Assembly: GCF_001661965.1 (NCBI RefSeq)
Contig: NZ_LYWZ01000023.1
Span: 186,001-250,000 of the forward strand
DNA: 64,000 bases
Direction: 5' to 3'
From: Croceicoccus mobilis
GTDB lineage: Bacteria > Pseudomonadota > Alphaproteobacteria > Sphingomonadales > Sphingomonadaceae
Below, piece by piece: positions 742 to 53,193 of the stretch (position 1 is its first letter; each line of letters begins with the position of its first letter). Both the position numbers and the translations under genes were made by a program. The notes under the pieces are model-generated. The model was not told the DNA's origin and did no database searches. It saw nothing but the letters and a program-made list of their open reading frames with translations.

Positions 742-761
742 TATAAAGATTGCTTTATATG
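742..761 (-). promoter_or_regulatory. Inverted-repeat operator upstream of metK (SahR-like site)
   Basis: The plus strand reads tataaagattgctttatatg, an inverted repeat TATAAAG-N4-CTTTATA. It lies 58 bp before the metK start and immediately after the lnt stop. An 18/20-identical copy occurs at 53174-53193, in front of the ArsR-type regulator/metF/metH operon and in the same orientation relative to the genes. The shared element is seen in the sequence. Assigning it to that regulator is inference from the SahR family, which controls SAM-cycle genes. Confidence 0.7.
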
Positions 762-765
762 TGCA

Positions 766-2385
766 TTAACCGCGGCGGCGGCGCAAGGCAACCATTGCCA
801 GCGCCAATAGCACCAATGCCCATGCCAGAGAGAGCCAGATACCCATTCGGGCAAAGGCGGTGGGCGCATGGGCAGGCGGCACGAACCCATCGATCCGGCC
901 CGATCGATAGGTGCCGATATGATCGCGCACCACGCCATTGGCGTCGATAACCGCGCTGATCCCGGTGGTGGTGGAGCGCATGACGGGCAGCCCCTCCTCC
1001 ATCGCGCGCAGCCTTGCCTGCGCCAGGTGCTGCGGCGGGCCCCACGCGCCGAACCAGCCATCGTTTGACGGGTTTACGATGTAATCGGGGCGGTTTTTGG
1101 AATCGACGACCTCGCCTGAAAACACGATCTCATAGCAAAGCTGGATCCCGGCCTGCCCCCATCGACCAAGGTCCAGTGTGCGCGGGCCGGGACCGGGGCG
1201 GAAATCAATCGAACCGGGCACCAGCCGCGTCACGCCCAGCGGCTCCAGCAAAGAGCGCATGGGAAGATATTCGCCATAGGGCACGAGATGCGACTTGGCA
1301 TAGCTGGCCGCGATCTCGCCATCGGGGCCGATCGCGGTGACGACATTTTCGGCCGCAATGGCACGGTTTTCGTTGCCGATGACGAGATCGACCGACCCCG
1401 TCACCAGCATTGCGCCCGGCCCCATCAGCGCGGCGATGCGGTCGCGCGCGATGTCGGGATCGGCGGCAAAGGTCGCCTGCCGGTAATAGCGCTGCGGATA
1501 GCCGTTCTCGAGATAATCGGGCACGCCCGATTCGGGCCAGAGCACCAGCCGCGTCTCGTCCTCCTTGGCAGGTGCGCCGGTCAATTCGACCGAGCGCAGG
1601 AAATTCGTCTCGTAATATTGCGGCTCGTTCAGCACCTCCTGCCGGATGTCGGGCTGGACGAGGCGGAATTCGAGCGTGCCCTGTTCTTCGGCGGGAGCGG
1701 GCCATGGCACGAAGAGCAACAGGCCGATGAGGGCCAAGGGCAGCGCGCGTTTGAGCCGATCCCGATCCATCATCGCCGCACGCATGGCAATCCACCACGC
1801 CCCCGCACAGGCCAGCACCAGCCCCGACAGCGCATAGGTGCCCATCCACGGCGCCAGCCAGCCGACCGCTCCGGGCCGGTCGAATCCGCCAACCAGCGCC
1901 ACGCCGACCGGGTTCCAGGCAAAGCCGGTAAACATTTCCCCGCGTAAGAATTCGCTGATCGCCCAGCATCCGGCCAATGCCAGCGCAAATGCCGCGGGCG
2001 ATGATCGGGCAAGAATGCGCGACCGGCGTGCGAGGGCCCATGCCCCCAGCACGGCAAGGCCGGGATAGACCGCCAGATAGAGCGAGAGCAGGAACACCGC
2101 GATCCAGCCAAGCCATGCAGGCATCGCCGCCTGATAGGTAAAGGCGGTGGCGATCCAATTGTTGCCGACGCAGAAATGGCCAACCCCGAACAGCCAGCCG
2201 ACCAGAAAGGCCCGTCCCGGCCTTTGCTGCCGAAACCCCAGCGCGGCCAGCACCGCCAGCCCCGCCAGCAGCAACGCCCACAGGTGCAGCGGCTCAAAGC
2301 CGGTGGCGGAAATCGCACCCGCCACAACGGCAACGAGCGGCACGAAACCGCGCCGCTCGCTCCAATTATTCAACTGCTTGCCCAC
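766..2385 (-). CDS. lnt: Apolipoprotein N-acyltransferase
   Basis: Inner-membrane enzyme that N-acylates the lipid-modified cysteine of lipoproteins, the last step of their maturation. At 539 residues it has the family layout: an N-terminal block of hydrophobic helices (about 1-230), a periplasmic nitrilase-like domain and a C-terminal membrane helix. The catalytic triad motifs are visible: Glu in LWPESG, Lys in YAKSHLVPYGEYLP and Cys in GIQLCYEIVF. It starts 10 bp downstream of the DUF4167 stop, so it probably belongs to the hisS-prfA-prmC-DUF4167-lnt run. At least nine proteins in this window carry lipoprotein signals and would be its clients. Confidence 0.96.
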   Translation of the reverse strand: MGKQLNNWSERRGFVPLVAVVAGAISATGFEPLHLWALLLAGLAVLAALGFRQQRPGRAFLVGWLFGVGHFCVGNNWIATAFTYQAAMPAWLGWIAVFLLSLYLAVYPGLAVLGAWALARRSRILARSSPAAFALALAGCWAISEFLRGEMFTGFAWNPVGVALVGGFDRPGAVGWLAPWMGTYALSGLVLACAGAWWIAMRAAMMDRDRLKRALPLALIGLLLFVPWPAPAEEQGTLEFRLVQPDIRQEVLNEPQYYETNFLRSVELTGAPAKEDETRLVLWPESGVPDYLENGYPQRYYRQATFAADPDIARDRIAALMGPGAMLVTGSVDLVIGNENRAIAAENVVTAIGPDGEIAASYAKSHLVPYGEYLPMRSLLEPLGVTRLVPGSIDFRPGPGPRTLDLGRWGQAGIQLCYEIVFSGEVVDSKNRPDYIVNPSNDGWFGAWGPPQHLAQARLRAMEEGLPVMRSTTTGISAVIDANGVVRDHIGTYRSGRIDGFVPPAHAPTAFARMGIWLSLAWALVLLALAMVALRRRRG

Positions 2386-2395
2386 GCGAGAGAGT

Positions 2396-3037
2396 TCAGC
2401 CGTTCACGACCTTCTGCTCGCTGTCGTCCTGCGCAACCTCGGCCTCTGCCTTGGGTTTGCGCGGGCGGCGGGTCCGCTTGGGTTTCTCGGGCTTTTCCTC
2501 GGACGTGTCGCCGATCGCGGGCGGCAGGGCCTGCGGATCGAGAGCACCCGAGTTCTCGACCGATTCCTCGGTCTCGCTCTCGGCCTTTTCATCGTCGCGC
2601 TTGCGGCTCTGGCGGCGCTTGCGATTGTCGCGGACAAAGGGGTTGTCGTCGGTCGAATCACGGCCCTGATCGCGGGTATTGTCCCGACCGGAATCACGGC
2701 GCTGCGAACGATTGTCGTTTTCCGCGCCATTGTCATCGTCCGACTGGCTGTCGTCGTCCGAGGACTGGTTCTTGTTGTCCTGCTTCTGCCGCTGCTCATC
2801 CTGACGGGCCTTGCCGTCGGCGATCACGCGGAAATAATGGTCTGCGAACTGCAGGTAATATTCGGCCTGCACGCGGTCGCCGTTGCGCGATGCCTCCTCG
2901 GCCAGCTTCTTGTACTTGTCGAGAAGCTGAGGCGCATTGCCCCGCGCCCGGCTGTCGATGCGGTTGAGATGCTGCCCGCCGCTTTGCGACCGGTTGTTAC
3001 GGCCACGCCGGCGATTATTGCCACGATTGCTGTTCAA
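2396..3037 (-). CDS. DUF4167 domain protein
   Basis: A 213-residue basic-then-acidic protein of the alphaproteobacterial DUF4167 family. The N-terminus (RGNNRRRGRNNR, then a helical segment around DKYKKLAEEASRNGDRVQAEYYLQFADHYFR at residues 40-70) is the conserved domain. The rest is low-complexity D/N/R/E/K sequence. No ATG fits: the reading frame opens with TTG at 3035-3037, preceded by a good GGAAAG ribosome-binding site eight bases upstream. Position next to prmC and prfA is usual for the family. The Arg/Asn/Gly-rich head suggests nucleic-acid binding, but the function is unknown. Confidence 0.85.
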   Translation of the reverse strand: MNSNRGNNRRRGRNNRSQSGGQHLNRIDSRARGNAPQLLDKYKKLAEEASRNGDRVQAEYYLQFADHYFRVIADGKARQDEQRQKQDNKNQSSDDDSQSDDDNGAENDNRSQRRDSGRDNTRDQGRDSTDDNPFVRDNRKRRQSRKRDDEKAESETEESVENSGALDPQALPPAIGDTSEEKPEKPKRTRRPRKPKAEAEVAQDDSEQKVVNG

Positions 3038-3374
3038 TTGAGTACTTTCCTCTGTCCGGCGCGCGGCGAAAACGAAGCCGCGTCGCTACCTCAGCCGGAA
3101 ATGCCCGGAGCGAAATTACGCCGGGCAGTGCTCCCCCGTGCGGCACGCGTCCCGCGACTGCGGGCAGAGCGTCATCCGCCCTCTCCGTCAAGCCAAGGCC
3201 GCATCCTTGCGACGCCAGGCTCACAGATAAAGAGGAGTGACGTGCGATGCGAGCCAAACCCATGGTAAGCCCCAGCGATCGCCTGTCTGGATCAAGGCCT
3301 ATCGACAAAAAGAGGCGCTGCCAAGTGTTTTATAGAAGAGTATGGTTAACGGGCCGTCAGGCCGCCTGCGCCCG
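3038..3374 (-). other. 337-bp gap: hairpin-rich leader of the DUF4167 gene
   Basis: No convincing gene. Read towards DUF4167 it holds several inverted repeats: 3062-3082 (CGCGGC / GCCGCG around a 9-nt loop, ending about 15 nt before the ribosome-binding site), 3151-3164 (perfect CCCGC-N4-GCGGG) and 3166-3184 (AGAGCG / CGC-CTCT). A TTAACCAT word on the minus strand, near 3345-3352, resembles a CtrA half-site. This may be a structured 5' leader or a small RNA; the sequence alone does not settle it. Confidence 0.4.
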
Positions 3375-4223
3375 TCAACCCCCGGCGATCCCCATGACGA
3401 CCACCCGGGGCCTGCCGGCAAGATCGTCGCGCGCCTCGGCCCACAGCCCGGCTTCCCGGGCGATCGCGATAACCGCATCGGCCTGCCGCGAACCGATTTC
3501 GAAGACCGCGATTCCCTTCGGCTGTAGCAAGTCGGGCAATGCCGGGATCAGCACCCGATAATCGTCGAGGCCGTCCAGCCCCGCGAATAGCGCCGCATGC
3601 GGGTCGCTTGCCGCGACATCGGCAGCAAGGTCGGGATCCCCGGTTTCGACATAAGGCGGGTTTGACAGGACAAGATCGAAGCGGCCCAGACCGTCCGACC
3701 AGCCTGCTTGCGTCCAGTCGCCTGCGCGCATGTCGGCGCGTGCCGCCAGTCCCGTCAGCCCGGCGTTGGCGCGGGCCACGGCCAGTGCTGCACCGCTACG
3801 CTCTATCCCCGCCCCTTCGGCATCGGGCCATACCGACAGCGCCGCCAGCAAAAGCGCACCCGAACCCAGCCCGCAATCGAGGACGCGCGCCGGTGCGTGG
3901 CTCGCAAGCATGTCTTGCGCGACATCGATCAGAATTTCCGTATCCGAACGCGGGATGAGCACATCGGGCGTGACCTTGAGGGAAAGGCCGTAGAATTCGG
4001 TCTCGCCGGTGATATGCGCCAGCGGCTCGCCGCACGCCCGCCGTTCGACCAGCGCGGCGAAGGCGGCTGGCGCCTCGGCCTGCATGTGACGCAGCAGCAG
4101 GTCCGAACGCGAACAATCCAGAGCATGCGCCATCAGCCACTCCGCCTCCAGCCGCGCCGCGTCGGTCACGGGCATCAAGCGCTGCGCCGCATCGCGCAGC
4201 GCAGCGGCGACTGTGTTATCCAT
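3375..4223 (-). CDS. prmC: Peptide chain release factor N5-glutamine methyltransferase
   Basis: Methylates the GGQ glutamine of release factors RF1/RF2 using SAM. The 282-residue protein has the N-terminal helical RF-recognition domain, the SAM-binding region around [14 protein letters not shown] and the diagnostic [12 protein letters not shown] motif that binds the glutamine side chain. The usual PRPDTE segment reads PRSDTE here. It overlaps the end of prfA, which encodes its substrate, by 8 bp, indicating translational coupling. Confidence 0.96.
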
Positions 4224-5283
4224 TCTGGGCGGCGAGGCGCTTGGCCTGATCCTCTGCGATCAGCGCGTCGATCAACTCGGCGAGCCCTGTACCTTCCAGC
4301 ACTTCAGGCAGCTTGTGCAGGGTGAGCCCGATGCGGTGATCGGTCACGCGTCCTTGCGGGAAATTATAGGTGCGTATGCGTTCGGAGCGGTCGCCGCTGC
4401 CGACCATGGCCTTCCTTGCCTCCGCCTCTTCGCCATGCGCCTCGTCGCGCATTTTCTCGTAAAGGCGGGCCCGCAGCACCTGCATCGCCTTGGCGCGGTT
4501 CTTGTGCTGGCTGCGTTCGTCCTGCTGCGTCACCACGATGCCACTGGGCAAATGCGTGATACGCACTGCCGAATCGGTGGTGTTGACGTGCTGCCCGCCC
4601 GCGCCCGACGCACGGTAGATGTCGATCTTGAGGTCGCCCGGATCAATCTGCACATCAACCTCGTCCGGTTCGGGGAGGACGGCGACGGTGGCGGCGCTGG
4701 TATGGATGCGCCCGCCGCTTTCGGTGACGGGCACGCGCTGCACGCGGTGGACACCGCTTTCGAACTTCAATTTCGCGAACACGCCTTGCCCGCGAACATT
4801 GGCGACCACTTCCTTGAAGCCGCCGATGTCGGATGCGTTGGCGCTGATCGTCTCGACCTTCCAGCCCTGCTCCGCGGCAAAGCGTTCGTACATGCGGAAG
4901 AGATCTGCGGCGAACAGCGCAGCCTCGTCCCCGCCGGTGCCGGCGCGGATTTCCAGCATCGCGGGGCGCGCATCGGCGGAATCTCGCGGCAGCAGAGCGA
5001 CGGCGAGCTTGGCCTCGGCCTCGGGCAGCTCGCCCTCGATCCGCTGGATGTCGTCGGCGGCCATCGCCTTCATCTCGGGGTCGGAAAGCATGTCCTGCAA
5101 TTCGGCCAGTTCCGAACGCATGGCCGCCACGTCCGCCGCCTCGCGCGCGACAGGCTCCAGCTCTGCGTAATCGCGGCTGGCGGTCACGAATTCCTCACCC
5201 TCCAGCGTGCCGGAGGCAAGGCGCGCCTCCAGCTCAGCGAAACGCTGCGCGATCTGGGCCAGGCGTTCGTCGGAAACCTGCAT
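4216..5283 (-). CDS. prfA: Peptide chain release factor 1
   Basis: Terminates translation at UAA and UAG. At 355 residues it is the normal family length. The catalytic GGQ lies in [14 protein letters not shown]. The stop-codon recognition tripeptide is PVT (in [13 protein letters not shown]), the P-x-T form of RF1 rather than the SPF of RF2. It starts 6 bp after the hisS stop and overlaps prmC, which modifies its GGQ. Confidence 0.97.
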
Positions 5284-5289
5284 GGGGGA

Positions 5290-6528
5290 TCAGTTCGCCA
5301 GCGCCTGCTCGATCCGAGCGGTCGCCGCGTCCTCGGCGCGGATGCGGCTGGTCACTTCGCCATCGCGGACGGCAAAGGCGACGATGGCCTCGGCGCCGAT
5401 CTTCACCGCCTTGTCGAAACGCTTGCGCGGAGATCCGCTCGCCATCAGTTCGGCGGAGATACCGGCGCGGCGCAGTCTGCCGATGGCGGCAATGCCCGCA
5501 TCTATCGCGGCATCGTCCTCGACCACGACAATGGCATCGGCGACTGGGCTTTCCGCCCGCTCACCCACCAGCATCGCCAGCCGCTCGATCCCGGCGGCCC
5601 AGCCGACCGCAGGCGTGGCAGGCCCGCCCAGGGCTTCCATCAGACCGTCATAGCGCCCGCCGCCCAGCACGGTGCCCTGCGCACCCAGCCGGTCGGTCAC
5701 GAATTCGAACGCGGTGTGGCGATAGTAATCGAGCCCGCGCACCAGCGCCGGAGCACGCGTCCAAGCCACGCCCGCCGCATCCAGCCCAGAGGTCACCGCG
5801 CCGAAGAAATCCTGCGCTTCGCCCGAAAGAAACTCGTCGATGAGCGGCGCATCGGCGACGAAGGCCTTGTCGCGCGGGTCCTTGGAATCGAGGATACGCA
5901 GCGGATTACGCTGAAGCCGGTCCTGAGAATCTTCGGACAGGTCCGCCCGGTGGCCCATGAAATATTCGATCAGCGCGGCGCGCCACGCATCGCGGCTGGC
6001 GGCATCGCCCAGCGTGTTCAGCTGCAATGTCACGCCATCGGCAATACCCAGTTCCTGCAAGAGCTGGTCGGCAAAGGCCAGCAGTTCGACATCGGCCTGC
6101 GGCTCGGCAGCGCCGATAATCTCGGCGTCGATCTGGTGGAACTGGCGATAGCGGCCCTTTTGCGGGCGTTCGTACCGGAACAGCGGGCCATGCGTCGCCA
6201 GCTTTACGGGCGCATATTGCTTCCAGCCATTGGTGAGGTAGGCGCGCGCCAGACCCGCCGTGAATTCGGGGCGCAGCGTCAGCGATTCGCCGCCGCGATC
6301 CTCGAAACTGTACATTTCCTTCGACACCACGTCGGTCGTCTCGCCCAAGGAGCGCGAGAATACGGCGGTCTTTTCGAATACCGGCATCTCGACCCGGCGG
6401 AAACGGTAGAGCTTGCGAAGCCGCTCGAAAGTCTCGACGACGAAGGCGAAGGCATCGGCCTCCTCGAAAATATCCTGGGTGCCGCGGATGGCCGAAGGAG
6501 TCTTGGTCGGGGTTTTGGGTTCGCTCAT
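5290..6528 (-). CDS. hisS: Histidyl-tRNA synthetase
   Basis: Class II aminoacyl-tRNA synthetase charging tRNA-His. The 412-residue protein begins [20 protein letters not shown]. Motif 2 is visible as [16 protein letters not shown], the histidine-binding loop as [13 protein letters not shown] and motif 3 as [14 protein letters not shown]-terminal anticodon-binding domain follows. The frame stays open a long way upstream, but the ATG at 6526-6528 is the only start consistent with the family N-terminus. It is the first gene of the minus-strand run and is divergent from the M61 peptidase gene. Confidence 0.96.
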
Positions 6529-6660
6529 GATGCAAGCGCCCTTAGCGGCACTCTCTCCCCGTGGAAAGCGGGTGCGCCGCCAAAACGGCTGATCGCAGCT
6601 GATGCACGGTCTCGCGATGACAGTTGCATTTGATACGACAAGTTGCCAATTCCCCTTTTC

Positions 6661-8622
6661 ATGAAGACGACCCCCATCCGCAGCATATTGCTGGCCTCCG
6701 CCCTCGCGCTCCCCTTCACTGCCGGTATTGCGCAGGCGCAGACCACGCTGTCTGCCCCCGTCGCCACACCGATCGAGCAGACCGTGCCCGATGCGGTCGA
6801 CACGCCCTATCCGGGCGGAACCATCGGCATTCACGTCGACGCGACCGATCTTGCCCACCGCGTGTTCCGGACCGAGCAGACGATCCCCGTCGCCGCCGGT
6901 ACGAGTGAACTGACCCTGCTCTATCCCGAATGGCTGCCCGGCCACCACGGCCCGGACGGCACTATCGATGCGCTGAACGGCCTTGAGTTCTATGCCGATG
7001 GCAAGCTGATCCCGTGGCGCCGCGACAATGTCGAGGTCTATGCCTTCCACCTCGCCTTCCCGGCAGGCACGAAAGAGATCACCGCCAAGATGGTCTACAC
7101 CTCGCCCGTTACCGGGAGCGAGGGCCGCATCGTCATGACCGACGAGTTGATGAACCTGCAGTTCAACCAGATGACGCTGTATCCCGCTGGCCATTACGTT
7201 CGCCAGATCAAGCTGAAGCCCAGCGTCACCATGCCCACCGGCTGGGCCACCGCCACCGCTCTCGACGGCCAGACGCAGTCGGGCGACACCGTCAGCTGGG
7301 ACGAGACGAGCTACCAGGTGCTGGTCGACAGCCCGATCATGGCCGGCAAGTATCACAAGAGCTGGGAAATCGGCGAAAACGAGACTTTCGAGGCCTTCGC
7401 CCACGATCCCGAAGAGCTGGAGATGAAGCCGGGCGAACTCGACGCGATGAAGGCTATGATGACCGAGGCCGGCCTGCTGTTCGGTTCGCGTCCGTTCGAT
7501 CATTATGAATTCCTGGTCGCCATTTCCGACGAACTGGGCGGTATCGGGCTCGAACATCACCGCTCGACCGAAATCTCGCTGCGTCCGGGCACGCTCACCA
7601 GCTGGGAAGACGGCAAGTATCCGGACAAGTTCGGATTCTCGGTCGATGTGCTTCCGCACGAACTGGTGCACAGCTGGAACGGCAAATATCGCCGCCCGGC
7701 CCTGACGTGGACGCCCGATTACCGCGAACCGATGCGCAATGACCTACTGTGGGTGTACGAAGGCATGACCCAGTACTGGGACCTGCCGCTCGCCGCGCGT
7801 TCGGGCATCAACACGAAGGAGCTGACGCTGGGCGAGATCGCTTCGTCGGCGGGCAATTACGACAATGAGCCGGGCCGCAGCTGGCGCGCGCTGATCGACA
7901 CCACCTATGACCCGATCACCGCCAACCGGAAGGCAAAGCCCTTCACCACCTTCTCGCGCAGCGAGGAATATTACAACGAAGGCTCGCTGATCTGGCTGGA
8001 AGCGGACATGATGATCCGCACCCAGACCAAGGGGAAGAAGTCGCTCGAGGATTTCGCCAAGCTTTTCTATGGCGCGACCGATGGCGATTACGGCGAAAAG
8101 ACCTACACCTTCGATCAGCTCGTGGCTGATCTGAACTCGGTCTATCCCTATGACTGGGCGCAGTTCCTGCGCGACCGGGTCTATACCGCCAATGCTCCGG
8201 CACCGCTCAATGGCATCGAACTGGGCGGCTACAAGCTGGTCTACAAGGACGAGCCCAACCCCTTCCGCAAGGGGATCGAGGAGCAGTACAAGTACCTCTA
8301 CCTGCGTTATTCGCTGGGCATGAGCGTGACGTCCGAAGGCAAGGTCACCGGCGTTGTTTGGGACGGTATCGCGTTCAACAACGACATCGTCAGCGGCCAG
8401 ACGATCGAGGCCGTGAACGGCAAGGAATATTCCGCCGATGTGATGAAAGAGGCGATCACCGCTGCCAAGGATGGCGCGCCGATCGAGCTTCTGATCAAGC
8501 GTGACGATGACTATCGCACCGTGTCGATCGATTACACCGGCGGCCTGCGCTATCCGTGGCTGGAAAAGACCGCCAAGGGCGAAGGCTATCTCGACAAGCT
8601 GCTGGCGCCCAAGCGCAAGTAA
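6661..8622 (+). CDS. Exported M61-family (glycyl aminopeptidase-type) metallopeptidase
   Basis: A 653-residue secreted protein. Residues 1-27 (MKTTPIRS, hydrophobic core, AQAQ) form a signal peptide. An N-terminal beta domain leads to a gluzincin core with zinc motif HELVHSW and the downstream glutamate in [14 protein letters not shown]. The C-terminal ~110 residues (from [15 protein letters not shown]) are a PDZ-like domain, the M61 arrangement. The ATG at 6661 is chosen because the signal peptide begins there; only a TTG lies further upstream in frame. The enzyme probably acts in the periplasm. The physiological substrate is unknown. Confidence 0.92.
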
Positions 8623-8650
8623 GCTTGCGTCAGCGACGCCAGGTGAAAGG

Positions 8651-8678
8651 GGGCGGGCTGCAAGGCCTGCCCTTTTTT
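8651..8678 (+). terminator. Intrinsic terminator after the M61 peptidase gene
   Basis: A nine-pair stem (GGGCGGGCT / GGCCTGCCC, including G-T pairs) closes a GCAA loop and is followed by six T residues at 8673-8678, 28 bp beyond the stop codon. Confidence 0.85.
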
Positions 8679-8904
8679 GCATCCCGCCGTTCGCAAATGC
8701 GGGAAGCATCGGGATATTCGACTTTTCGGTGAGACGGCGGCCCAGCGGGGTTAACCCCCTTGGCCCCGGCGCAATGCGGCGCTAGATGGCGCGTGCAGGT
8801 CGTAACCGGCCAGCCGCCCCGCGCTATTGCAGCGCAGCGCATGGCGGCCATCCGGACCATCCGTGAAAGCGGCCTATAAGAGTCCACAAGACAAAGGTAA
8901 TTCC

Positions 8905-9450
8905 ATGCGCATCGACATGATCCCGATTGGCGACAACCCGCCCGAGAGCCTGAACGTCATCATCGAAGTTCCCACCGGCGGCGAACCGGTGAAGTATGAA
9001 TTCGACAAGGAATCGGGCGCGCTCTTCGTCGACCGCATCCTGCACACGCCGATGCGCTATCCGGCGAACTACGGCTTCGTGCCGCACACGCTATCGCCCG
9101 ATGGCGATCCGCTCGATGCGCTGGTCGTGGCGCGCAGCCCCTTCATTCCGGGCTGCGTCGTGCGCGCCCGCCCCATCGCCGTGCTGAACCTCGAGGATGA
9201 GCATGGCGGCGATGAGAAGCTGGTGTGCGTACCGGTCGATTCGACCTTCCCCTATTACACCAAGGTCGCCGAAATGGATGACCTGCCCGAAATCGTCTAT
9301 CAGCAGATCGAGCACTTCTTCACCCACTACAAGGATCTCGAAAGCGAGAAGTGGGTCCGTGTCGGCACCTGGGGCGGCGCGGAAGAAGCCAAGCGCATCA
9401 TCCTCGAAGCGATCGAGCGCGAGAAGGAAGCCAAGGCCGCCAAGGCCTGA
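8905..9450 (+). CDS. ppa: Inorganic pyrophosphatase
   Basis: Soluble family I pyrophosphatase of 181 residues. Diagnostic blocks are KYEFDKESGALFVDR, MRYPANYGFVPHT and the metal-binding DGDPLDALV. It hydrolyses the PPi released by biosynthesis. The ATG at 8905 has an AAAGG ribosome-binding site about 7 bases upstream. It is monocistronic and convergent with the MscS gene, with 16 bp between the stops. A perfect GGGGTTAACCCC palindrome lies upstream at 8747-8758. Confidence 0.97.
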   Translation: MRIDMIPIGDNPPESLNVIIEVPTGGEPVKYEFDKESGALFVDRILHTPMRYPANYGFVPHTLSPDGDPLDALVVARSPFIPGCVVRARPIAVLNLEDEHGGDEKLVCVPVDSTFPYYTKVAEMDDLPEIVYQQIEHFFTHYKDLESEKWVRVGTWGGAEEAKRIILEAIEREKEAKAAKA

Positions 9451-9466
9451 GGCTTACAGGCAGCGG

Positions 9467-10894
9467 CTATTCGATCGGGCGGCGGGAATCGAGCAGATCC
9501 CCCTCGCCCGTATCGGCCCGCTCCTTGTTGACCAGATCGGCGATATGGCTTTCGGGCTTGATGTCCGCGGCCATCGCTTCCGCCTCTGGCGCGGCTTGCG
9601 CCTTCGCAGGGGCAGTGACAGGCACCGGTGCTTCCGGTGCCTTTTGCGTTGGCCCGCCGCCCTGGCCTTCTGCCGAAACGGGCGTGCTGGTCGGCAGCGG
9701 CGCGCTCCGCGGATCCATGCGCAGGCGATAGATCGGTTCGGGCAGGGCAAAGCCTGCCTCCTCCAGCGCTGTCTTCGCCGCGCGGATAGCGAGGGAGCGG
9801 CCCTTGTTGAAATCGGTCACGTCCTGATCGACCCAGCCGAAGAAGCGCAGCACGATATTGCTGTCGCCCACGTTCACGACCCACGCGCTCGCTTCCGGGT
9901 CCTTCAGCACGAAATCGAGCCGTCGCAGCGCCTCCAGCCCGACAGCCATGCCATCGACCGGATCGTCATCGGCATCCACGCCCAGATCGAAGGCAAAGCG
10001 CCTTTGCGGATTGCGCGTGTAGTTCAGGATCACCGCCTTGAAGACGGTGGAATTGGGGATGCGCAGATGGTTGCCATCAAGCGTCATCAGAATCGTCGCG
10101 CGGCTGGTCAGCCTCACGACGCGGCCCTCCTCGCCCTCTATCACCACGTGATCGTTGGCGCGAAAAGGCTGGCGCAGCGACAGCATGACCGAGGAAATGT
10201 AATTGTCGATGGTGTCCCGCACGGCAAAGCCGATGGCGATGCCGATTACGCCGCCAATGCCAAGCAGCGCACCCAGCAAGGCCGTCGCGCCAAGGATCTT
10301 GAGCGCGAGATAGATCCCGAACAGCACGCCAATAAAGCGCACCGCGCTTGCCATGAGTTCGGCCACAAAGCCGTTCGGCGACAATCGCGCCCAAAGCGCC
10401 CCTGCGCTCGCCAGCCAGCGGGTGAGCAGGATGACCAACAGCGCGACCAGCAGCGCCACCGCCAGCAGCGGGCTCAATCGCAGCAGGTTACGCGCCTCGC
10501 CGATGATGGATTGCAGTGCCGGGGTAATGTTCGAAGAGACCGCGACATCGCGCTCTATGTTATTGTCGACCGTCACCACGCCCGCGACGCGGCCCGCGAT
10601 GTCATCGGCCTGAGCCGACTGGTCAGCGCCCGCCGTTCCCGACAGGGTGACGACGCCCTCCTCGACCTCGACGCTGACGCCCGAAAGCCCGTCAATTGCC
10701 GCGAAGATGCCACTGATGCGCTGGGCGATGCGCTGATCCTCGCCCGCGTCGCGCTCGGCCTCGATCGCGGGTGATGCGGTTTCCGTTCCCTCTGTTTCCG
10801 AGGTCCCGGTCAAGAGTTCGGTGCCGTCCTGCGCTACCGCCGGCTGCGCCGCCAGCAGCGCCATCGCGGCAAAGGCAAGGAAGCAACGCAGCAT
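9467..10894 (-). CDS. Mechanosensitive channel of the MscS family with an N-terminal BON domain
   Basis: A 475-residue inner-membrane channel expected to open under hypo-osmotic tension. In order it has a signal peptide (MLRCFLAFAAMALLAAQPAVAQ), a periplasmic BON-like domain at about 50-115 (GLSGVSVEVEEGVVTLSGTAG... VVTVDNNIE), hydrophobic helices from about 140, the MscS pore helix and beta domain (GVIGIAIGFAVRDTIDNYISS, QPFRANDHVVIEGEEGRV, LRIPNSTVF) and a Pro/Ala/Glu-rich tail. The BON module is a non-standard addition to the minimal MscS. The start codon overlaps the pmbA stop by one base, so the two are co-translated. Confidence 0.92.
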   Translation of the reverse strand: MLRCFLAFAAMALLAAQPAVAQDGTELLTGTSETEGTETASPAIEAERDAGEDQRIAQRISGIFAAIDGLSGVSVEVEEGVVTLSGTAGADQSAQADDIAGRVAGVVTVDNNIERDVAVSSNITPALQSIIGEARNLLRLSPLLAVALLVALLVILLTRWLASAGALWARLSPNGFVAELMASAVRFIGVLFGIYLALKILGATALLGALLGIGGVIGIAIGFAVRDTIDNYISSVMLSLRQPFRANDHVVIEGEEGRVVRLTSRATILMTLDGNHLRIPNSTVFKAVILNYTRNPQRRFAFDLGVDADDDPVDGMAVGLEALRRLDFVLKDPEASAWVVNVGDSNIVLRFFGWVDQDVTDFNKGRSLAIRAAKTALEEAGFALPEPIYRLRMDPRSAPLPTSTPVSAEGQGGGPTQKAPEAPVPVTAPAKAQAAPEAEAMAADIKPESHIADLVNKERADTGEGDLLDSRRPIE

Positions 10895-13255: not shown

Positions 13256-13274
13256 CCGGACGACACGCCATTCC

Positions 13275-22628: not shown

Positions 22629-22632
22629 CCCC

Positions 22633-41417: not shown

Positions 41418-41439
41418 TCAGGCGCACATCTCCGATTGG

Positions 41440-41660: not shown

Positions 41661-41728
41661 GCGTTTCTGGGGTTCACGCAGGTTCGCAGCATTGGACTTT
41701 CAGGGCGAAGGCCCTAAGTGCTTCCCCC

Positions 41729-42523: not shown

Positions 42524-42527
42524 CGCC

Positions 42528-43880: not shown

Positions 43881-44489
43881 TTATTCGATTTGGTATCCGC
43901 CGAGCCCTTCGAGGGGCGGTAAGCTTTTTAGGATCGCGTTCAGATCGTCTCTTACGACTTTCCCGCTTGAGGTCGTACATTCACGTGGGAACACGAAAGC
44001 ACCATGGGCTTCTCGAAACCTCGTTCCGAATGTGACACTCGCCTGCGACACCGAATGAAGGGGAACCGAACAGCCTTTGGGAGTCAACACCATATCCTTG
44101 TTAGAGTGAGCGGAAGGTAGATAATGTGAAAGTCTCTGTCGGATTGCCTTATAGTTCTCCTCTGAAATTTTCTTACGATCTACCGTACTAATCTCCATTT
44201 CAGGGATGACATCTTCAGTCCAAAACAAGATGTATCTCTTGGAGTAAACTACGTGATCTGCGCCAATCTCGACGAAGACATTCGTTGCCACGAGATCGCT
44301 ACCAATATCACCTCTTTCAAATTCGTCGCCACGCACCGCGATAAAAAAGCTTTCGCTTTCGCCGATTGACCTTGGATGGCCCTCATTGCCATCTCCTAAG
44401 TGGCTGCGGACATCCGGTTGCGACGAACATCCACCCAATGAAAGTGCGAAAGGAGCAAAGAAAAGACAGTAGGTGTGGAATGTCGGCAT
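43881..44489 (-). CDS. Orphan lipoprotein in an AT-richer patch
   Basis: 202 residues, not recognised. Signal peptide MPTFHTYCLFFAPFALSLGGC with a lipobox-like LGGC, then a mixed alpha/beta sequence (VRGDEFERGDIGSDLVATNVFVEIGADHVVYSKRYILFW). Codon use is clearly less GC-rich than in every neighbour (many AAA, ATT, GAT, TTT), suggesting recent acquisition. It stands alone, with no operon partner. Confidence 0.6.
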   Translation of the reverse strand: MPTFHTYCLFFAPFALSLGGCSSQPDVRSHLGDGNEGHPRSIGESESFFIAVRGDEFERGDIGSDLVATNVFVEIGADHVVYSKRYILFWTEDVIPEMEISTVDRKKISEENYKAIRQRLSHYLPSAHSNKDMVLTPKGCSVPLHSVSQASVTFGTRFREAHGAFVFPRECTTSSGKVVRDDLNAILKSLPPLEGLGGYQIE

Positions 44490-44668
44490 CTTCTAAAATT
44501 ACTAAATGCCTCAAACGCCCGCAATCGGTCGTTTGCAGACAGTCCGCTTTTGGCGCAAAACCCGAAAAACCTGCGCCAGCCACGGCAAAGCCGCGGCTGT
44601 CACGTCGAACGGCTCGCGGCGGGCCATGGCCCCGCGCAGCCGTCGGCCGGGGTTACCGGCTCTCGCTT

Positions 44669-44702
44669 CCAAGGCGCGATTGCTGCGCAATTCGCTCCTT
44701 GG
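44669..44702. repeat. 34-bp interrupted palindrome downstream of the SPFH gene
   Basis: CCAAGG (44669-44674) pairs with CCTTGG (44697-44702), and inner GCGATTGC with GCAA-TCGC with one bulged base. It lies about 17 bp beyond the SPFH stop. With no T tract it looks more like a dispersed REP-type palindrome than a terminator, but only one copy is in the window. Confidence 0.4.
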
Positions 44703-44718
44703 GCGCGGGCCGTCACCC

Positions 44719-45603
44719 TCACCCTTTCCCCGTATTCACCACCGGCTGGGCATCGCGGTCGCCGCAAAGCACCACCATCAAATTCGCTACCATATCGGCG
44801 CGCTGGTCGGGGGTGAGGTCGACGATCTCGTCCGATTTCAGCTTGTCCAGCGCCATCTCCACCATCGAGACTGCGCCCATCACCAGCTTGGCGCGGGCGG
44901 CGATGACGGCTTCGGCCTGCTGGCGGCGCAGCATGGCGCCTGCGATCTCGCTCGCATAGGCGAGATGGGTGAGGCCCGCTTCGTCAACCACGATGCCGGC
45001 GACCTTCAGCCGTTCGTTCAATTCGGCCTGCAGTTCGGCGTTGATGACATCGGCGCTGCCGCGCAATGTCGTCTCGTCCTCTTCACCCATGTCGTCATAG
45101 GGATGGCGCGCGCCCACGGTGCGCAGCCCCGCCTCGATCTGGATGTTCACGAATTCCTTGTAGTCGTCGACGTCGAACACGGCCTGCGCCGTATCCTCCA
45201 CGCGCCAGACGACATTGCAGGCGATGTCGATGGGATTGCCGCGCAGATCGTTGATCTTGACCTTTTCGGAATGGATATTGTGCGCACGCACCGACACCTT
45301 GTGGCGCGCCATCCACGGCCACACCCAGCGCAGACCATTGGTCCGGTCGGTTCCGCGATAGCTGCCGAACAGGGTAATGACCGCTGCATTATTGGGTTGC
45401 AGCATATAGAACCCCGCCGTCATGAAGACGAGGCCGACGACCGACAGGATCAGCGTGAAGACCCCGAACGCCCCCGCCCGATCAAGCTGAGGGACCGAGA
45501 ACAGGCCCATCAGAATATCGCCCAGCAGCAGCACCAGTATCGGATAGCCGCTGAATGTGTTCGCCCCGGTCTCCCGCGACGTCTTCATCGATTTGAGTTC
45601 CAT
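44719..45603 (-). CDS. SPFH/band-7 domain membrane protein
   Basis: 294 residues: two membrane helices (about 20-70, PILVLLLGDILMGLFSVPQ and GVFTLILSVVGLVFMTAGFYML) then the SPFH domain (NNAAVITLFGSYRGTDRTNGLRWVWPW... NVVWRVEDTAQAVFDVDDYKEFVNIQIEAGLRTV) and a helical C-terminus. Members organise membrane microdomains and often partner proteases. AAGGGG ribosome-binding site. Lies 48 bp downstream of recQ on the same strand. Confidence 0.9.
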   Translation of the reverse strand: MELKSMKTSRETGANTFSGYPILVLLLGDILMGLFSVPQLDRAGAFGVFTLILSVVGLVFMTAGFYMLQPNNAAVITLFGSYRGTDRTNGLRWVWPWMARHKVSVRAHNIHSEKVKINDLRGNPIDIACNVVWRVEDTAQAVFDVDDYKEFVNIQIEAGLRTVGARHPYDDMGEEDETTLRGSADVINAELQAELNERLKVAGIVVDEAGLTHLAYASEIAGAMLRRQQAEAVIAARAKLVMGAVSMVEMALDKLKSDEIVDLTPDQRADMVANLMVVLCGDRDAQPVVNTGKG

Positions 45604-45651
45604 CGGAATGCCCCTTTCCCGTCTGGGGCAACGCTATAGCACAATAGAATA

Positions 45652-47457
45652 TCAGGAATACTGCTCGATCACGCCCAGGAAATCCTCGCCATAGGCATCG
45701 AGCTTTTTCGCGCCAATGCCGGGGAGTTCGCCCAGCTGCCACAGGCTGCCGGGTTTCTTTTCGGCCATGTCGCGCAAGGTGCTGTCGTGGAAGATGACAT
45801 AGGGCGGCACGCCCGCGTCCTTGGCCAGATCGCGGCGCAGCGTGCGCAAAGCCTCGAACAAGGGATCGCCTACGGGGTTGGGTGTGGCATCGCCGCCCAC
45901 GCCCCGTTTCCGGCTGCGAGCGGTCCGCGGCGGCATCACGAGGTCAAGCGGCACCTCGCCCTTCAAATAGGCTTTCGCCTCCGGCCCCAGCATCAAACCG
46001 CCATGTTCGGTGGGAAGCAATGCGCCCCGCACCTGCAGCGCGCGTGACACGGGCTTGAGCAGTGCCGCCTCCTCGCCATCGACGATCCCAAAGACCGAGA
46101 GGCTGTCATGCCCGTTCTGGCGGCTGCGGTCGGTGGACTGGCCGGTCAGGATGCTCTCGACATAGCCCGCGCCATACATCTGCCGCGTGCGGGCGACGGC
46201 AGACAGGTATTTCTGCGCGGTGACGGTGGCGTCGACCGCCTTGGGCGGGTTGAGGCAATTGTCGCAATTGCCGCAGGTTTCGGGCGGGGTTTCGCCGAAA
46301 TGCCGCAGCAGGATCGCGCGGCGGCATCCGGCGGTTTCGACCAACGCGCCCAATGCGCCCAGCCGCGCGCGTTCGCCGGTGCTGCGGTCCTGCCCCACTT
46401 CGGCCACGCGCATGCGGGCGCGGGCGAAATCATCGCCGCCCCAGAAGAGATGCGCGACCGAAGGATCGCCATCGCGGCCAGCGCGGCCGGTTTCCTGGTA
46501 ATAGGCCTCGATCGACTTCGGCAGCCCTGCGTGGATGACGAAGCGCACGTCGGGCTTGTCAATGCCCATGCCGAAAGCGACCGTGGCGACGATCACCATG
46601 TCCTCGCTCGCCACGAAATCGTGCTGGTTCTTCGCGCGCACTTCGGGCGGGAGACCAGCGTGATAGCAGCGCGTCTCGCGGCCCGACTTGCCCAGGGTTT
46701 CGGCAAGGCGCTCGGTCGCGGCGCGGGTGGGTGCATAGACGATGCCGGGGCCGGGCTCCGCATCGATGATCTGCTGGATCTGCCGCGTCAGGCTGTCGCG
46801 CGGGCGGATGTGATAGCGGATATTGGGGCGGTCGAACCCGGCGACGATCAGCCCCTCGCCGGGAATGCCGAGCTGGGTGAGGATGTCGGCGCGCGTATGT
46901 TCATCCGCCGTCGCTGTCAGCGCAAGGCGGGGAACGTCCGGAAACGCCTCCATCATCGGCGCGAGCAGGCGATAATCAGGGCGGAAATCGTGGCCCCATT
47001 CGGAAACGCAATGCGCCTCGTCGATGGCAAACAGCGCGATGCGGCATTGCTGCAGCAAATCGCGGAAGTGCGGCTGGCTGGCGCGTTCGGGCGCAACGTA
47101 TAGCAGGTCGAGATCGCCCGCGAGCAGGCGCTGGATCGTCTCGGCCCGGTTTTCATCGACGCTGGTAAGGGTCGCGGCGCTTATGCCGTTCGCCTCGGCA
47201 CTGCGCAGCTGGTCATGCATCAGCGCGATCAGCGGGCTGACGACGATGCAGGTGCCCTCCAGCATCAGCGAGGGGAGCTGGTAGCAAAGCGACTTGCCCG
47301 CGCCGGTGGGCATCACGCCCAGCGTGGACTGTCCGGCCAGCACGCGCTCCACCACATCGGCCTGCACCCCGCGAAAGGCGGAAAAGCCGAAGGTGCGCTT
47401 AAGGATGTCGAGGGCGGCCTGCATGCTGAAAGGCCATGGCAGATCGCGCGCCCGCAT
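45652..47457 (-). CDS. recQ: ATP-dependent DNA helicase RecQ
   Basis: 3'-5' superfamily 2 helicase for recombination and stalled-fork repair. 601 residues: Walker A GAGKSLCYQLPS, IDEAHCVSEWGHDFRPDY, ETGRAGRDG (motif VI), zinc-binding CGNCDNC, and a C-terminal HRDC domain (LRRDLAKDAGVPPYVIFHDSTLRDMAE). Starts 25 bp after the metH stop and may be the last gene of the methionine operon transcript. Confidence 0.96.
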   Translation of the reverse strand: MRARDLPWPFSMQAALDILKRTFGFSAFRGVQADVVERVLAGQSTLGVMPTGAGKSLCYQLPSLMLEGTCIVVSPLIALMHDQLRSAEANGISAATLTSVDENRAETIQRLLAGDLDLLYVAPERASQPHFRDLLQQCRIALFAIDEAHCVSEWGHDFRPDYRLLAPMMEAFPDVPRLALTATADEHTRADILTQLGIPGEGLIVAGFDRPNIRYHIRPRDSLTRQIQQIIDAEPGPGIVYAPTRAATERLAETLGKSGRETRCYHAGLPPEVRAKNQHDFVASEDMVIVATVAFGMGIDKPDVRFVIHAGLPKSIEAYYQETGRAGRDGDPSVAHLFWGGDDFARARMRVAEVGQDRSTGERARLGALGALVETAGCRRAILLRHFGETPPETCGNCDNCLNPPKAVDATVTAQKYLSAVARTRQMYGAGYVESILTGQSTDRSRQNGHDSLSVFGIVDGEEAALLKPVSRALQVRGALLPTEHGGLMLGPEAKAYLKGEVPLDLVMPPRTARSRKRGVGGDATPNPVGDPLFEALRTLRRDLAKDAGVPPYVIFHDSTLRDMAEKKPGSLWQLGELPGIGAKKLDAYGEDFLGVIEQYS

Positions 47458-47482
47458 GGAACGGGCGCGCCTGTCTTAATCC

Positions 47483-50116
<2,634 letters not shown>

Positions 50117-50136
50117 GATAATTCCTATGCGCCCGC

Positions 50137-51198
50137 TCAAGCGGCCATGATAAAGGGTTCGAGGCCCGCAAGCCGCGTTTTCGTTTCAAGCGTCGGCAGC
50201 TGGCGCGGTGCGATGCCCGCCACCGCCTTGGCCATGGCCGCAATATGCTGCGGGCTGGAACCGCAGCATCCGCCCAGCACATTGACCAGTCCGCGCTCCG
50301 CCCATTCGCGGACAAAGCCCGCCGTGGTGTCGGGCATCTCGTCGTATTCGCCCAGCTCGTTGGGGAGGCCCGCATTGGGGTAATGCATGGTCAGGCAATC
50401 GGCGATCTTCGCCAGATGCGCGACATGGGGTGCAAGCTGCGTCGCGCCGAACGAGCAGTTCAGCCCGACCGTCAGCGGCTTGGCATGGCGCACAGCATAC
50501 CAGAATGCCTCGACCGTGTGGCCCGACAGATTGCGGCCCGAAAGATCGGTCAGCGTCATCGACAGCATGATCGGTACTTCGCGGCCCAGCTCGCGCTCGA
50601 CCTGCTTCACCGCCATGATGCCGGCCTTGGCGTTCAAAGTATCGAACACCGTTTCGATCAGGATGAAATCCGCCCCGCCTTCGGCCAGTGCCTTGGCCTG
50701 CTCGGCATAGACCTGGGTTAGATAGTCGAAATCAATCTCGCGGTAGCCCGGATCGTTCACGTCGGGCGAGAGCGAAAGCGTCTTGTTGGTCGGCCCGATC
50801 GCGCCTGCGACAAAGCGCGGGCGGCCATCCTTGTCTGCGAATTCGTCTGCAACCTTGCGCGCCAGACCTGCGCTTTCGCGGTTGAGTTCGACGACCAGTT
50901 CTTCCGCAGCATAATCGGCCTGGCTGATACGATTGGCCGAAAACGTGTTGGTCTCGGCAATATCGGCGCCGGCCTCGAAATAGGCGCGGTGGATCGATTC
51001 GGGCACTTCGGGCTTCGTCAGGGCGAGGATATCATTGTTGCCCTTCTGGTCCTTCGTCAGTCCCAGCGTTCCGGCATAATCTTCCTCGACCAGCCCCTTG
51101 GTCTGGATCTGGGTACCGAATGCGCCATCGGTGATGAGAATGCGCTTCGCGGCTTCGGTCTCGAAGGCGGCGCGTGCTGCACTGGGTTCAATCGTCAT
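50137..51198 (-). CDS. metH: Methionine synthase, homocysteine-binding part
   Basis: 353-residue homocysteine S-methyltransferase domain, the N-terminal module of MetH as its own protein. N-terminal motif [13 protein letters not shown]; zinc ligands in [10 protein letters not shown] and the double cysteine [11 protein letters not shown]. It must work together with the downstream B12-binding protein. The start overlaps the metF stop (ATGA), so the operon regulator-metF-metH(N)-metH(C) is tightly coupled. A longer upstream frame is out of family. Confidence 0.95.
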
Positions 51199-52115
51199 GC
51201 TGCGGTCTCCGGTTCGGGCGTCTTCACCTTGGGCCGCAGGCCCAGAAGGTGGCAGATCGCATAGGACAGTTCGGCCCGGTTCAAGGTGTAGAAGTGGAAG
51301 TCGCGCACGCCGCCCTGATACAGGCGGCGGCACATTTCGGCTGTGATGGTGGCGGCGACCAGCTTGCGCGCGTCGGGTCGGTCGTCCAGCCCTTCGAACA
51401 GATCGTCCATCCATTTCGGAATATGCGCGCCGCATTGCGTGGCGAATTTGCGCGTCTGGGCCACATTCGAAACAGGCAGGATGCCCGGCAGGATCGGCGC
51501 GCTGATGCCCTGCGCTGCTGCCGTGTCCTGAAATTTCAGGAAGCTGGCAGGATCAAAGAAAAACTGCGTGATCGCCCGGCTCGCGCCGGCATCGATCTTG
51601 CGTTTGAGATTGTCGAGATCGGCCTGCGGCGACAGCGCCTCGGGGTGTGTTTCGGGATAGGCCGCGACCGAGATGTCGAAATCGGCGATCTCCTTCAGCC
51701 CCGCGACCAGTTCGGCGGCGCTGGCATAGCCGCCGGGATGCGGTTCGAACTTGCCGCCGGGCGTCGTTGGATCGCCGCGCAGCGCGACGATATGGCGCAC
51801 GCCCGCTTCCCAATAGCTTTCGGCGATTTCGCGGATCTCATCCTTGGTCGCTTCCACGCAGGTCAGATGCGCGGCGGCGGGGAGATGCGCTTCCTTGATG
51901 ATGCGCTCCACCGTACCATGGGTGCGTTCGCGGGTGGTGCCGCCCGCGCCATAGGTAACCGAAACGAACGAAGGATCGAGCGGCGCCAGCTTACGGATCG
52001 CATCCCACAGCTGCGCCTCCATCTTCTCCGTCTTGGGCGGGAAGAATTCGAAGGAGACCGCGATATCGCCGGGAAGCCCGGCGAACAACGGCGCTGAAAT
52101 GCTGGTACTGCTCAT
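51195..52115 (-). CDS. metF: 5,10-methylenetetrahydrofolate reductase
   Basis: Flavoprotein supplying 5-methyltetrahydrofolate to MetH. 306 residues with VSFEFFPPKTEKME, VSVTYGAGGTTRERT, HLTCVEATKDEI, the substrate loop ALRGDPTTPGG and ASRAITQFFFDP. Overlaps the regulator upstream and metH downstream by ATGA. Confidence 0.97.
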   Translation of the reverse strand: MSSTSISAPLFAGLPGDIAVSFEFFPPKTEKMEAQLWDAIRKLAPLDPSFVSVTYGAGGTTRERTHGTVERIIKEAHLPAAAHLTCVEATKDEIREIAESYWEAGVRHIVALRGDPTTPGGKFEPHPGGYASAAELVAGLKEIADFDISVAAYPETHPEALSPQADLDNLKRKIDAGASRAITQFFFDPASFLKFQDTAAAQGISAPILPGILPVSNVAQTRKFATQCGAHIPKWMDDLFEGLDDRPDARKLVAATITAEMCRRLYQGGVRDFHFYTLNRAELSYAICHLLGLRPKVKTPEPETAA

Positions 52116-53161
52116 GAACTGCTACGCTTTCTGGAACTGGCCCCGGCCTTGCGCAGGGGCGTGATATTCTTGATCGTGTCGGCGCGGGTGGCGACCCAGA
52201 TTCGCACCGTCAATTCTCCGCCCTCGATGGCGGCATCGGCACTGGCCGTGAATCCGGCATCGCCCAGCAGGGATGCCATCTGCCCGTCGGTAAAGCCAAG
52301 GCGGGCATGGGCATCACGCTCACGCAATTCCTCGAACCGATGGGCCGCGAAATCGACGATGACGACGCGCCCGCCGGGGCGGGTGACGCGGGCCGCTTCT
52401 GCCAGCGCGAGTTCGGGGAGCTGCGCGTAATGCAGCACCTGGTGAAACAGCACCGTGTCGAAGCTGCCATCGGAAAACGGCAGTTCGGTAAAATCGCCCT
52501 GCAGCAGATTGAGCCGCGCAGGCGGCAGATGCTGCAGGCGGGCACGCGCAACACGCAGCATGTCCGCGCTCTTGTCGATGGCGGTGACGTGGCGAGCATG
52601 GGCGGCGAACAATTCTGCCATGCGCCCCGTCCCGGTACCGATGTCGAGAAGATCGCCCAGCGCCTCCTCACCCTCGTTCGCGGACAGGCCCAACAGCTCG
52701 CCCAGTCGCGCCTCGACCAGCGCGTCATCGCTGTGGAGGCTCCTGAGCCGGTCCCATTCCTCGGCATGGCGGGCGAAGTAATATTCGGCGCTTTCCTCCC
52801 GCGCGGCGCGGATCGCGGCAAGGCGGTGCAGATCACCCTGCGCATCGGCGGCGAAGCCTGCGTCCTCTTCCTCTGCCGCCGCCAGCAGGCGGTCGGTCGC
52901 GGCCATCATGGCCGAGGGAGAATCGCCGAGCCGTGTCTTCAGAAAGACCCAGCTCCCCTCCTTGCGCTTTTCCACCAGCCCCGCTTCTGTCAGAATGCGG
53001 ATATGGCGCGAAATGCGCGGCTGGCTCTGCTCCAGCACTTCGGCCAGTTCGCCCACGGCCAGCTCCATGCGCGACAACAGGCGCAACAGCCTGAGGCGCG
53101 AGGGATCGTCGATCGCGCGCAGCAGGTCGGAAATGGCCAGGGATGATGGCGTGGCTGTCAT
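52112..53161 (-). CDS. ArsR-family regulator with methyltransferase domain (SahR-like)
   Basis: 349 residues from the ATG at 53161. An earlier TTG in frame is excluded because it would read through the operator. N-terminal ArsR winged helix (DLLRAIDDPSRLRLLRLL... LEQSQPRISRHIRILTEAGLVEKRKEG, about 8-95), then a SAM-dependent methyltransferase fold (DIGTGTGRMAELFAAHARHVTAIDKS, about 160-310). This is the layout of SahR-type repressors sensing S-adenosylhomocysteine. Inference: it represses its own operon and metK through the inverted repeats at 53174-53193 and 742-761. Confidence 0.85.
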   Translation of the reverse strand: MTATPSSLAISDLLRAIDDPSRLRLLRLLSRMELAVGELAEVLEQSQPRISRHIRILTEAGLVEKRKEGSWVFLKTRLGDSPSAMMAATDRLLAAAEEEDAGFAADAQGDLHRLAAIRAAREESAEYYFARHAEEWDRLRSLHSDDALVEARLGELLGLSANEGEEALGDLLDIGTGTGRMAELFAAHARHVTAIDKSADMLRVARARLQHLPPARLNLLQGDFTELPFSDGSFDTVLFHQVLHYAQLPELALAEAARVTRPGGRVVIVDFAAHRFEELRERDAHARLGFTDGQMASLLGDAGFTASADAAIEGGELTVRIWVATRADTIKNITPLRKAGASSRKRSSS

Positions 53162-53173
53162 GACGGACCGGGA

Positions 53174-53193
53174 TATAAAGAAAGCTTTATATG
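53174..53193 (-). promoter_or_regulatory. Inverted-repeat operator of the regulator-metF-metH operon
   Basis: The plus strand reads tataaagaaagctttatatg, TATAAAG-N4-CTTTATA, differing at only two positions from the metK site. It lies 12 bp before the regulator start, between plausible minus-strand -35 (TTGCAA) and -10 (TATATC) elements 17 bp apart, a classical repressor position. Confidence 0.75.

What the first reader, a model, noticed from the sequence alone, without database searches (positions are those of the whole stretch)
742..53193. Nearly identical inverted-repeat operators tie metK to the distant regulator-metF-metH operon
Two 20-bp sites, tataaagattgctttatatg (742-761) and tataaagaaagctttatatg (53174-53193), match at 18 of 20 positions and share the architecture TATAAAG-N4-CTTTATA. 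They sit in the same orientation in front of metK and of an operon headed by an ArsR-HTH plus SAM-methyltransferase fusion. SahR-type regulators of this layout sense S-adenosylhomocysteine. The pair suggests a self-contained SAM-cycle regulon in which the sensor is built from a methyltransferase fold. No SAM or cobalamin riboswitch is seen at either promoter.
Basis: partly seen in the sequence, partly recalled or inferred. Interest (0 to 1): 0.7.

Follow-up and report, generated by a model that had tools for sequence, protein, structure and literature searches.

The report
SahR repressor and its SAM-cycle operators
Three matching palindromic DNA sites let one sensor protein, built from a methyltransferase, control the enzymes that recycle the cell's methyl donor; this is a clean new example of an already published bacterial regulatory circuit (SahR).

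Summary
TATAAAG-N4-CTTTATA occurs exactly twice in the window and three times in the whole 4.2 Mb genome. So the sites mark sahR-metF-metH, metK and ahcY, a complete SAM-cycle regulon. Of 60 genomes of the order (own genome included), 56 have a SahR match and carry sites with at most 1 mismatch; the four without SahR carry none. This is the published SahR regulon: Leyn et al. 2014 (PMC4239095) report it in 7 of 7 Sphingomonadales, with a 20-bp palindrome and the core sahR, ahcY, metH, metH2, metF, metK. Smaller additions: operator geometry differs at the three promoters; three of the four SahR-less genomes also lack MetH and the usual MetF; one relative has a single-domain MetE-like gene behind sahR in place of metF-metH. 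Ordinary as a kind, useful as a well-supported annotation.

The parts
741..760 (.). SahR-type operator upstream of metK (20-bp palindrome frame; core 742-759), 58 bp before the metK start codon
   Evidence: exact core match; palindrome frame; site before metK with at most 1 mismatch in 14 of 14 genomes of the genus set
1..683 (-). metK, SAM synthetase (cut by the window edge; full gene 417 aa in L007)
   Evidence: TIGR01034 above cut-off
53173..53192 (.). SahR-type operator upstream of sahR (core 53174-53191), 12 bp before the sahR start codon
   Evidence: exact core match; 55 of 55 genomes tested have a site with at most 2 mismatches before sahR
53172..53200 (-). putative sahR core promoter: TTGCAA (53200-53195), 17-base spacer, TATATC (53177-53172), overlapping the operator; positions counted by hand on the sequence
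   Evidence: the spacing is found at the same place in 13 of 13 genomes of the genus set examined; pattern chosen after seeing the alignments; the consensus scan found no promoter
52112..53161 (-). sahR: ArsR-type HTH (about 19-65) plus class I SAM methyltransferase domain (about 172-268), 349 aa
   Evidence: Pfam; model pLDDT 87.7; 41-sequence alignment
51195..52115 (-). metF, methylenetetrahydrofolate reductase; overlaps the end of sahR by 4 bp
   Evidence: Pfam PF02219; TIGR00676 and NF006950 above cut-off
50137..51435 (-). metH, N-terminal part (homocysteine S-methyltransferase domain); the ORF is longer than the homologous part, which begins near residue 86
   Evidence: PF02574, and positions 7-354 of NF007024
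47483..50140 (-). metH, C-terminal part (pterin-binding, B12-binding, activation domains)
   Evidence: PF00809, PF02607, PF02310, PF02965; TIGR02082 above cut-off

Best explanation
The protein at 52112-53161 is SahR, a dimeric ArsR-family repressor whose sensor domain is a methyltransferase fold that binds S-adenosylhomocysteine (SAH). When SAH is low it sits on ATATAAAG-N4-CTTTATAT operators before sahR-metF-metH, metK and ahcY and blocks transcription. When methylation reactions raise SAH, SAH binds and SahR lets go. AhcY then removes SAH, MetF-MetH remethylate homocysteine, and MetK remakes SAM. Shown here: the sites, their rarity, their gene targets, their conservation and co-loss with SahR, and the domain make-up. 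Inferred: dimer binding, the sign of regulation, and SAH as ligand (from the family).
For: Three exact sites in the genome, all before SAM-cycle genes. A SahR match in 56 of 60 genomes, and sites with at most 1 mismatch in the same 56 and in none of the other four (Fisher p 2e-6, related genomes so not independent). At up to 2 mismatches, a site before sahR in 55 of 55 SahR genomes tested, before ahcY in 53 of 55, before metK in 46 of 55. 80 of 83 exact sites lie before these three genes. Pocket motif DxGTGTGR, D196, and HTH residues QSQPR-S-H invariant in 41 of 41 aligned SahR. Leyn et al. 2014: 7 of 7 Sphingomonadales, 20-bp palindrome, same core genes.
Against: No binding, ligand or expression data for this protein. 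With 1 mismatch allowed, the reversed control pattern also hits in the more distant genomes: 38 reversed against 65 forward in the 24 order-level genomes, 3 against 86 in the 36 of genus and family (my sums), so weak sites in the distant ones include chance hits. The ahcY operator abuts the -35 side rather than covering -10 or +1, a place from which activation would also be possible. metK is not always a member: 9 of 55 SahR genomes tested have no metK site within 2 mismatches, and G051 was not tested; in three of the nine (G039, G045, G056) and in G051 metK follows ahcY closely by coordinates. ahcY has none in G026 and G032.
Confidence: 0.94

Rival explanations
1. The regulator binds the same sites but senses SAM, or the SAM/SAH ratio, rather than SAH, as proposed for the relative SamR of Xanthomonadales.
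For: The fold can bind SAM and SAH alike (general knowledge); the pocket motif is the generic class I methyltransferase one. Leyn et al. leave the SamR effector open.
Against: The target set is the SahR core with ahcY, which SamR regulons lack. ahcY has a site in 53 of 55 SahR genomes tested, fitting an SAH signal.
Confidence: 0.08
2. It is an active methyltransferase with an HTH, such as the ArsR-ArsM fusion ArsRM, acting in arsenic methylation, and the met operators belong to another factor.
For: ArsR-methyltransferase fusions of that kind exist (PMC10190100, seen in a search listing only).
Against: The protein has no cysteine; its operon is metF-metH (metF follows sahR in 79 of 80 named loci); sites and this gene are present and absent together.
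Confidence: 0.02
3. The palindromes are AT-rich promoter elements that look alike by chance or through shared promoter structure, not operators.
For: TATAAA resembles a -10 box and the sahR site overlaps a putative -10.
Against: The site sits at three different places relative to the putative -35/-10, and is absent from the metK and ahcY promoters of the four genomes without SahR: 0 of 8 regions within 2 mismatches. Expected number by chance far below 1.
Confidence: 0.01

Closest known systems
SahR regulon of Proteobacteria (Leyn et al. 2014, PMC4239095, sections and passages read; Novichkov et al. on Desulfovibrio, cited there, not held)
   Same: ArsR-family regulator; 20-bp palindromic operator; core targets sahR, metF, metH, metH2, metK, ahcY; reported for 7 of 7 Sphingomonadales
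   Different: Nothing essential. In this genome exact sites mark only core genes. The published motif logo (Figure S1) could not be read here, so letter-by-letter identity is untested.
SahR of Ensifer aridi (PMC8877191, passages read)
   Same: Sites before sahR, ahcY, metH, metK; autoregulation supported by a deletion strain
   Different: Also bhmT there; metF is not named among the targets in the passages read
SamR of Xanthomonadales (PMC4239095)
   Same: Distant homologue (about 30% identity per the paper); regulon includes metK, metF and methionine synthase genes
   Different: 24-bp motif; SAM-cycle genes other than metK not in the regulon; ligand unknown
SAH riboswitch regulon (PMC4239095)
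   Same: Works like it: SAH-responsive control of ahcY and metF
   Different: RNA element; none at gathering score in the window or around metK and ahcY

Membership tests
SahR regulator | ArsR-family DNA-binding domain | tested here: met
   PF01022 E 3.9e-15, NF033788 above cut-off
SahR regulator | C-terminal SAM-methyltransferase-like domain (recalled; not seen stated in a passage read) | tested here: met
   PF08241 E 1.3e-26; model with mean pLDDT 87.7
SahR regulator | 20-bp palindromic operator | tested here: met
   ATATAAAG-N4-CTTTATAT; exact 18-base core at three sites, outermost base pair imperfect at the metK site
SahR regulator | Core targets sahR, metF, metH, metK, ahcY | tested here: met
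SahR regulator | Autoregulation site before its own gene | tested here: met
   53173-53192; a site within 2 mismatches in 55 of 55 genomes tested
SahR regulator | Responds to SAH and represses | not testable with these tools
   no bench work possible; pocket motif invariant in 41 of 41
Arsenite-responsive ArsR / ArsRM | Cysteine ligands for As(III) (recalled) | tested here: not met
   no cysteine in 349 residues
SAM, SAH or cobalamin riboswitch | Rfam match at or above the gathering score | tested here: not met
   0 in the window; only a tRNA in L005 and L007, around ahcY and metK

The most novel reading that the evidence does not exclude
The SahR circuit is kept only while methionine is made by the MetF-MetH route. 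When a lineage drops that route, SahR and all its operators go with it, or (as in relative G026) SahR stays and drives a single-domain MetE-like enzyme (family NF005085) that then serves as a methionine synthase without the MetF-MetH pair. SahR operons would thereby point to an uncharacterised methionine synthase.
Probability: 0.22. Interest if true: 0.45.

Novelty: already known. Interest (0 to 1): 0.2.

Why it matters
It fixes a reliable annotation: the ArsR-methyltransferase fusion is SahR and the three palindromes are its operators; no known riboswitch was found at these genes. The closest named relatives of the regulator are from Croceicoccus. The absence of SahR, MetH and the usual MetF from the same three genomes, and the MetE-like gene behind sahR in another, give a testable lead on how some sphingomonads make methionine.

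Tried and rejected
Fourth site in the genome (C15:195477, 2 mismatches): it lies inside an ORF with a glycosyl hydrolase 8 match, and the reversed control pattern gives three hits at that level; rejected as chance.

Riboswitch instead of, or beside, SahR: none at gathering score in the window or around metK and ahcY; none around metK and ahcY of the four SahR-less genomes, or around the metF of one of them (G059). What controls these genes there is unknown.

Sigma-70 consensus scan at the three promoters found nothing. The promoter geometry rests on a looser pattern (TTGNNN-N17-NANNNN) chosen after looking at the alignments, and for metK it lies inside the upstream ORF (766-2385), where conservation may be coding.

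MesX (PF08908) as part of a replacement methionine route: 0 of 60, but the control genomes were silent too, so absence is not shown.

Solved structure of a two-domain SahR: none among the 60 shown of 69 sequence matches; in each the best stretch covers one domain only. By fold, the best hits are Rv2258c (one form with SAH bound) and methyltransferases with TM-scores near 0.4 over the whole chain, so only the methyltransferase domain is informative. Searches were translations in a wrong frame and were not used.

Rows dropped: alignment A1 holds P0001, 25 of the 30 SahR loci (L009 is P0001 itself; L020, L021, L022, L027 left out) and 15 of the 80 loci. G012 is left out of the sahR-site count (contig break), G050 out of the ahcY count (no ahcY match at 1e-30), G051 out of the metK count (its metK upstream region was not scanned). 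Matches of SahR in G028, G045, G048 and G053 contain one or two stop codons in the matched stretch; I did not look into these.

Full report
Observation. The core TATAAAG-N4-CTTTATA is present exactly at 742-759 and 53174-53191 and nowhere else in the window even with 3 mismatches. In the whole genome (4,205,437 bases in 32 contigs) there are three exact matches: these two and one at C12:93069-93086. The third lies 69 bp before the start of a 483-residue protein that passes the NCBIfam model for adenosylhomocysteinase, TIGR00936. The expected number of exact matches per genome is below 0.001. One place with 2 mismatches sits inside another ORF, and the reversed control gives 3 hits at that level, so it is not counted.

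Genes. The regulator has an ArsR HTH and a class I methyltransferase domain. It is followed, with a 4-bp overlap, by metF and then by metH split in two ORFs. metK starts 58 bp beyond the first site. No Rfam family reaches its gathering score in the window, and around metK and ahcY only a tRNA does.

Relatives. A search for the regulator in 60 genomes (own genome included) gives a SahR match covering both domains in 55, counting two broken in pieces (G020, G047), and a match cut by a contig end in G012: 56 in all. G021, G027, G030 and G059 have only weak methyltransferase or HTH matches. Four of the 56 matches (G028, G045, G048, G053) contain one or two stop codons, not examined further. Sites with at most 1 mismatch occur in 56 of 60, the same 56. 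In the genus set (14 genomes) there are 41 sites, three per genome except G012 with two, and the reversed control gives 0 in all 14. All 41 lie before sahR, metK or ahcY. Over the 56 genomes 132 of 151 sites lie before these three genes; of the 83 exact sites, 80 do. The other three exact ones: one about 0.4 kb before a metE match in G045, one 10 bp before the likely start of an adenosine deaminase fragment in G047, one unexplained in G033. The reversed control sums to 41 hits over the 60 genomes, 38 of them in the 24 order-level genomes (forward there: 65), so one-mismatch sites in those include chance hits (my additions).

Where a site with at most 1 mismatch was missing in a SahR genome, upstream regions were fetched: a 2-mismatch site was found for sahR in 10 of 10, for metK in 11 of 20, for ahcY in 2 of 4. 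Not tested: sahR of G012 (contig break) and metK of G051. In sum, within 2 mismatches: sahR 55 of 55 tested, ahcY 53 of 55, metK 46 of 55. Of the nine metK without a site, three (G039, G045, G056) follow ahcY closely and may be co-transcribed with it, as may that of G051 (inference). In mononucleotide-shuffled regions 4 of 2000 reach 2 mismatches or fewer. In the four genomes without SahR, 0 of 8 metK and ahcY regions do; G030 keeps a 3-mismatch and a 4-mismatch sequence that may be decayed operators. In the 80 loci kept from another collection (Croceicoccus, Novosphingobium, Qipengyuania, Erythrobacter and others) a site with at most 1 mismatch lies by the sahR start in 78, and metF follows sahR (match ends between -50 and 200 bp apart) in 79 (some sites overlap the estimated start because starts were extrapolated).

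How it works. In 41 aligned SahR proteins the recognition region QSQPR and the SAM/SAH-binding motif DxGTGTGR with the following acidic D196 are invariant, and there is no cysteine in this protein, so a metal or arsenite sensor is unlikely. The predicted structure is confident (pLDDT 87.7, pTM 0.86): HTH, long helices, then an alpha/beta methyltransferase-like domain. Promoter geometry in the genus set: a TTGNNN-N17-NANNNN spacing lies at the same place for sahR in 13 of 13 (operator between -35 and -10 and over -10), for ahcY in 14 of 14 (operator abutting the upstream side of -35), for metK in 10 of 14 (operator just beyond -10, over the expected start point). The pattern was chosen after seeing the alignments, and consensus scans found no promoter. 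If right, the repressor blocks RNA polymerase from three different positions, and the short distance from -10 to the sahR ATG suggests a leaderless sahR mRNA (inference).

Comparison with what is known. Leyn et al. 2014 (PMC4239095; [quoted passage not shown] Its supplements were not readable here. A follow-up (PMC5343134, passages) lists SahR regulons in 62 genomes of 9 groups. PMC8877191 (passages) supports SahR autoregulation in Ensifer aridi and cites Novichkov et al. for SAH-dependent operator binding in Desulfovibrio; I looked for that paper by a recalled DOI and it is not held. Every defining feature that could be tested was met. The finding is therefore an already known kind of regulon.

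Side observations. MetH (PF02965) is not found in 4 of 60 genomes: G021, G026, G027, G030. G021, G027 and G030 also lack SahR; a MetF protein search at 1e-20 finds none in them, while the Pfam MTHFR model gives G021, G026 and G027 one distant match each, weak but over Pfam's cut-off, and G030 none; G000 and G001 have such a distant second match too. SahR and MetH presence are associated (55, 1, 1, 3; Fisher p 0.0005, related genomes). G026 keeps sahR with only the site before sahR itself; directly behind sahR comes a single-domain MetE-like gene (NF005085 above cut-off, PF01717) in place of metF-metH, with HxC, E and C residues in the arrangement that I recall for the MetE zinc site. The same family occurs in G021 and G027 without a SahR-like site near it. 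That this enzyme is a methionine synthase is inference; folate-independent methionine synthases (MesA to MesD) are known (PMC7857596, passages), and I did not show that this family is or is not one of them. G059 (85% complete) lacks SahR but has MetF and MetH.

Noticed in passing
L211 (G026:C43), 5368-7550: sahR followed directly by a single-domain MetE-like gene (NF005085) where relatives have metF-metH; the genome has no MetH match (PF02965) and only a weak distant MTHFR match.
   Followed up: partly
G021, G027, G030: Three genomes of the same family lack SahR, SahR sites with at most 1 mismatch, the usual MetF and MetH; how they make methionine is open. G030 has a strong MetE catalytic-domain match (PF01717, in an 882-residue open frame) but no MTHFR match.
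   Followed up: partly
L247 (G047:C561), site 407-424: Exact SahR-type site 10 bp before the likely start of an adenosine deaminase fragment at a contig end: a sensible extra member, since it would remove the adenosine made by AhcY. By coordinates no listed site lies near the adenosine deaminase matches of the 9 other genomes that have one.
   Followed up: partly
L249 (G033:C27), site 1615-1632: An exact site with no identified target gene on a 3.7 kb contig.
   Followed up: no
G001:C5, G026:C57, G027:C3: Weak MTHFR-like and weak MetE-like matches lie about 2 to 8 kb from each other, apart from the SahR regulon: perhaps a separate C1 or demethylation cluster.
   Followed up: no
L001, 1700-2179: A peroxiredoxin-like gene (Redoxin, PF08534) is divergent from ahcY, about 180 bp from the operator; whether SahR affects it is unknown.
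   Followed up: no
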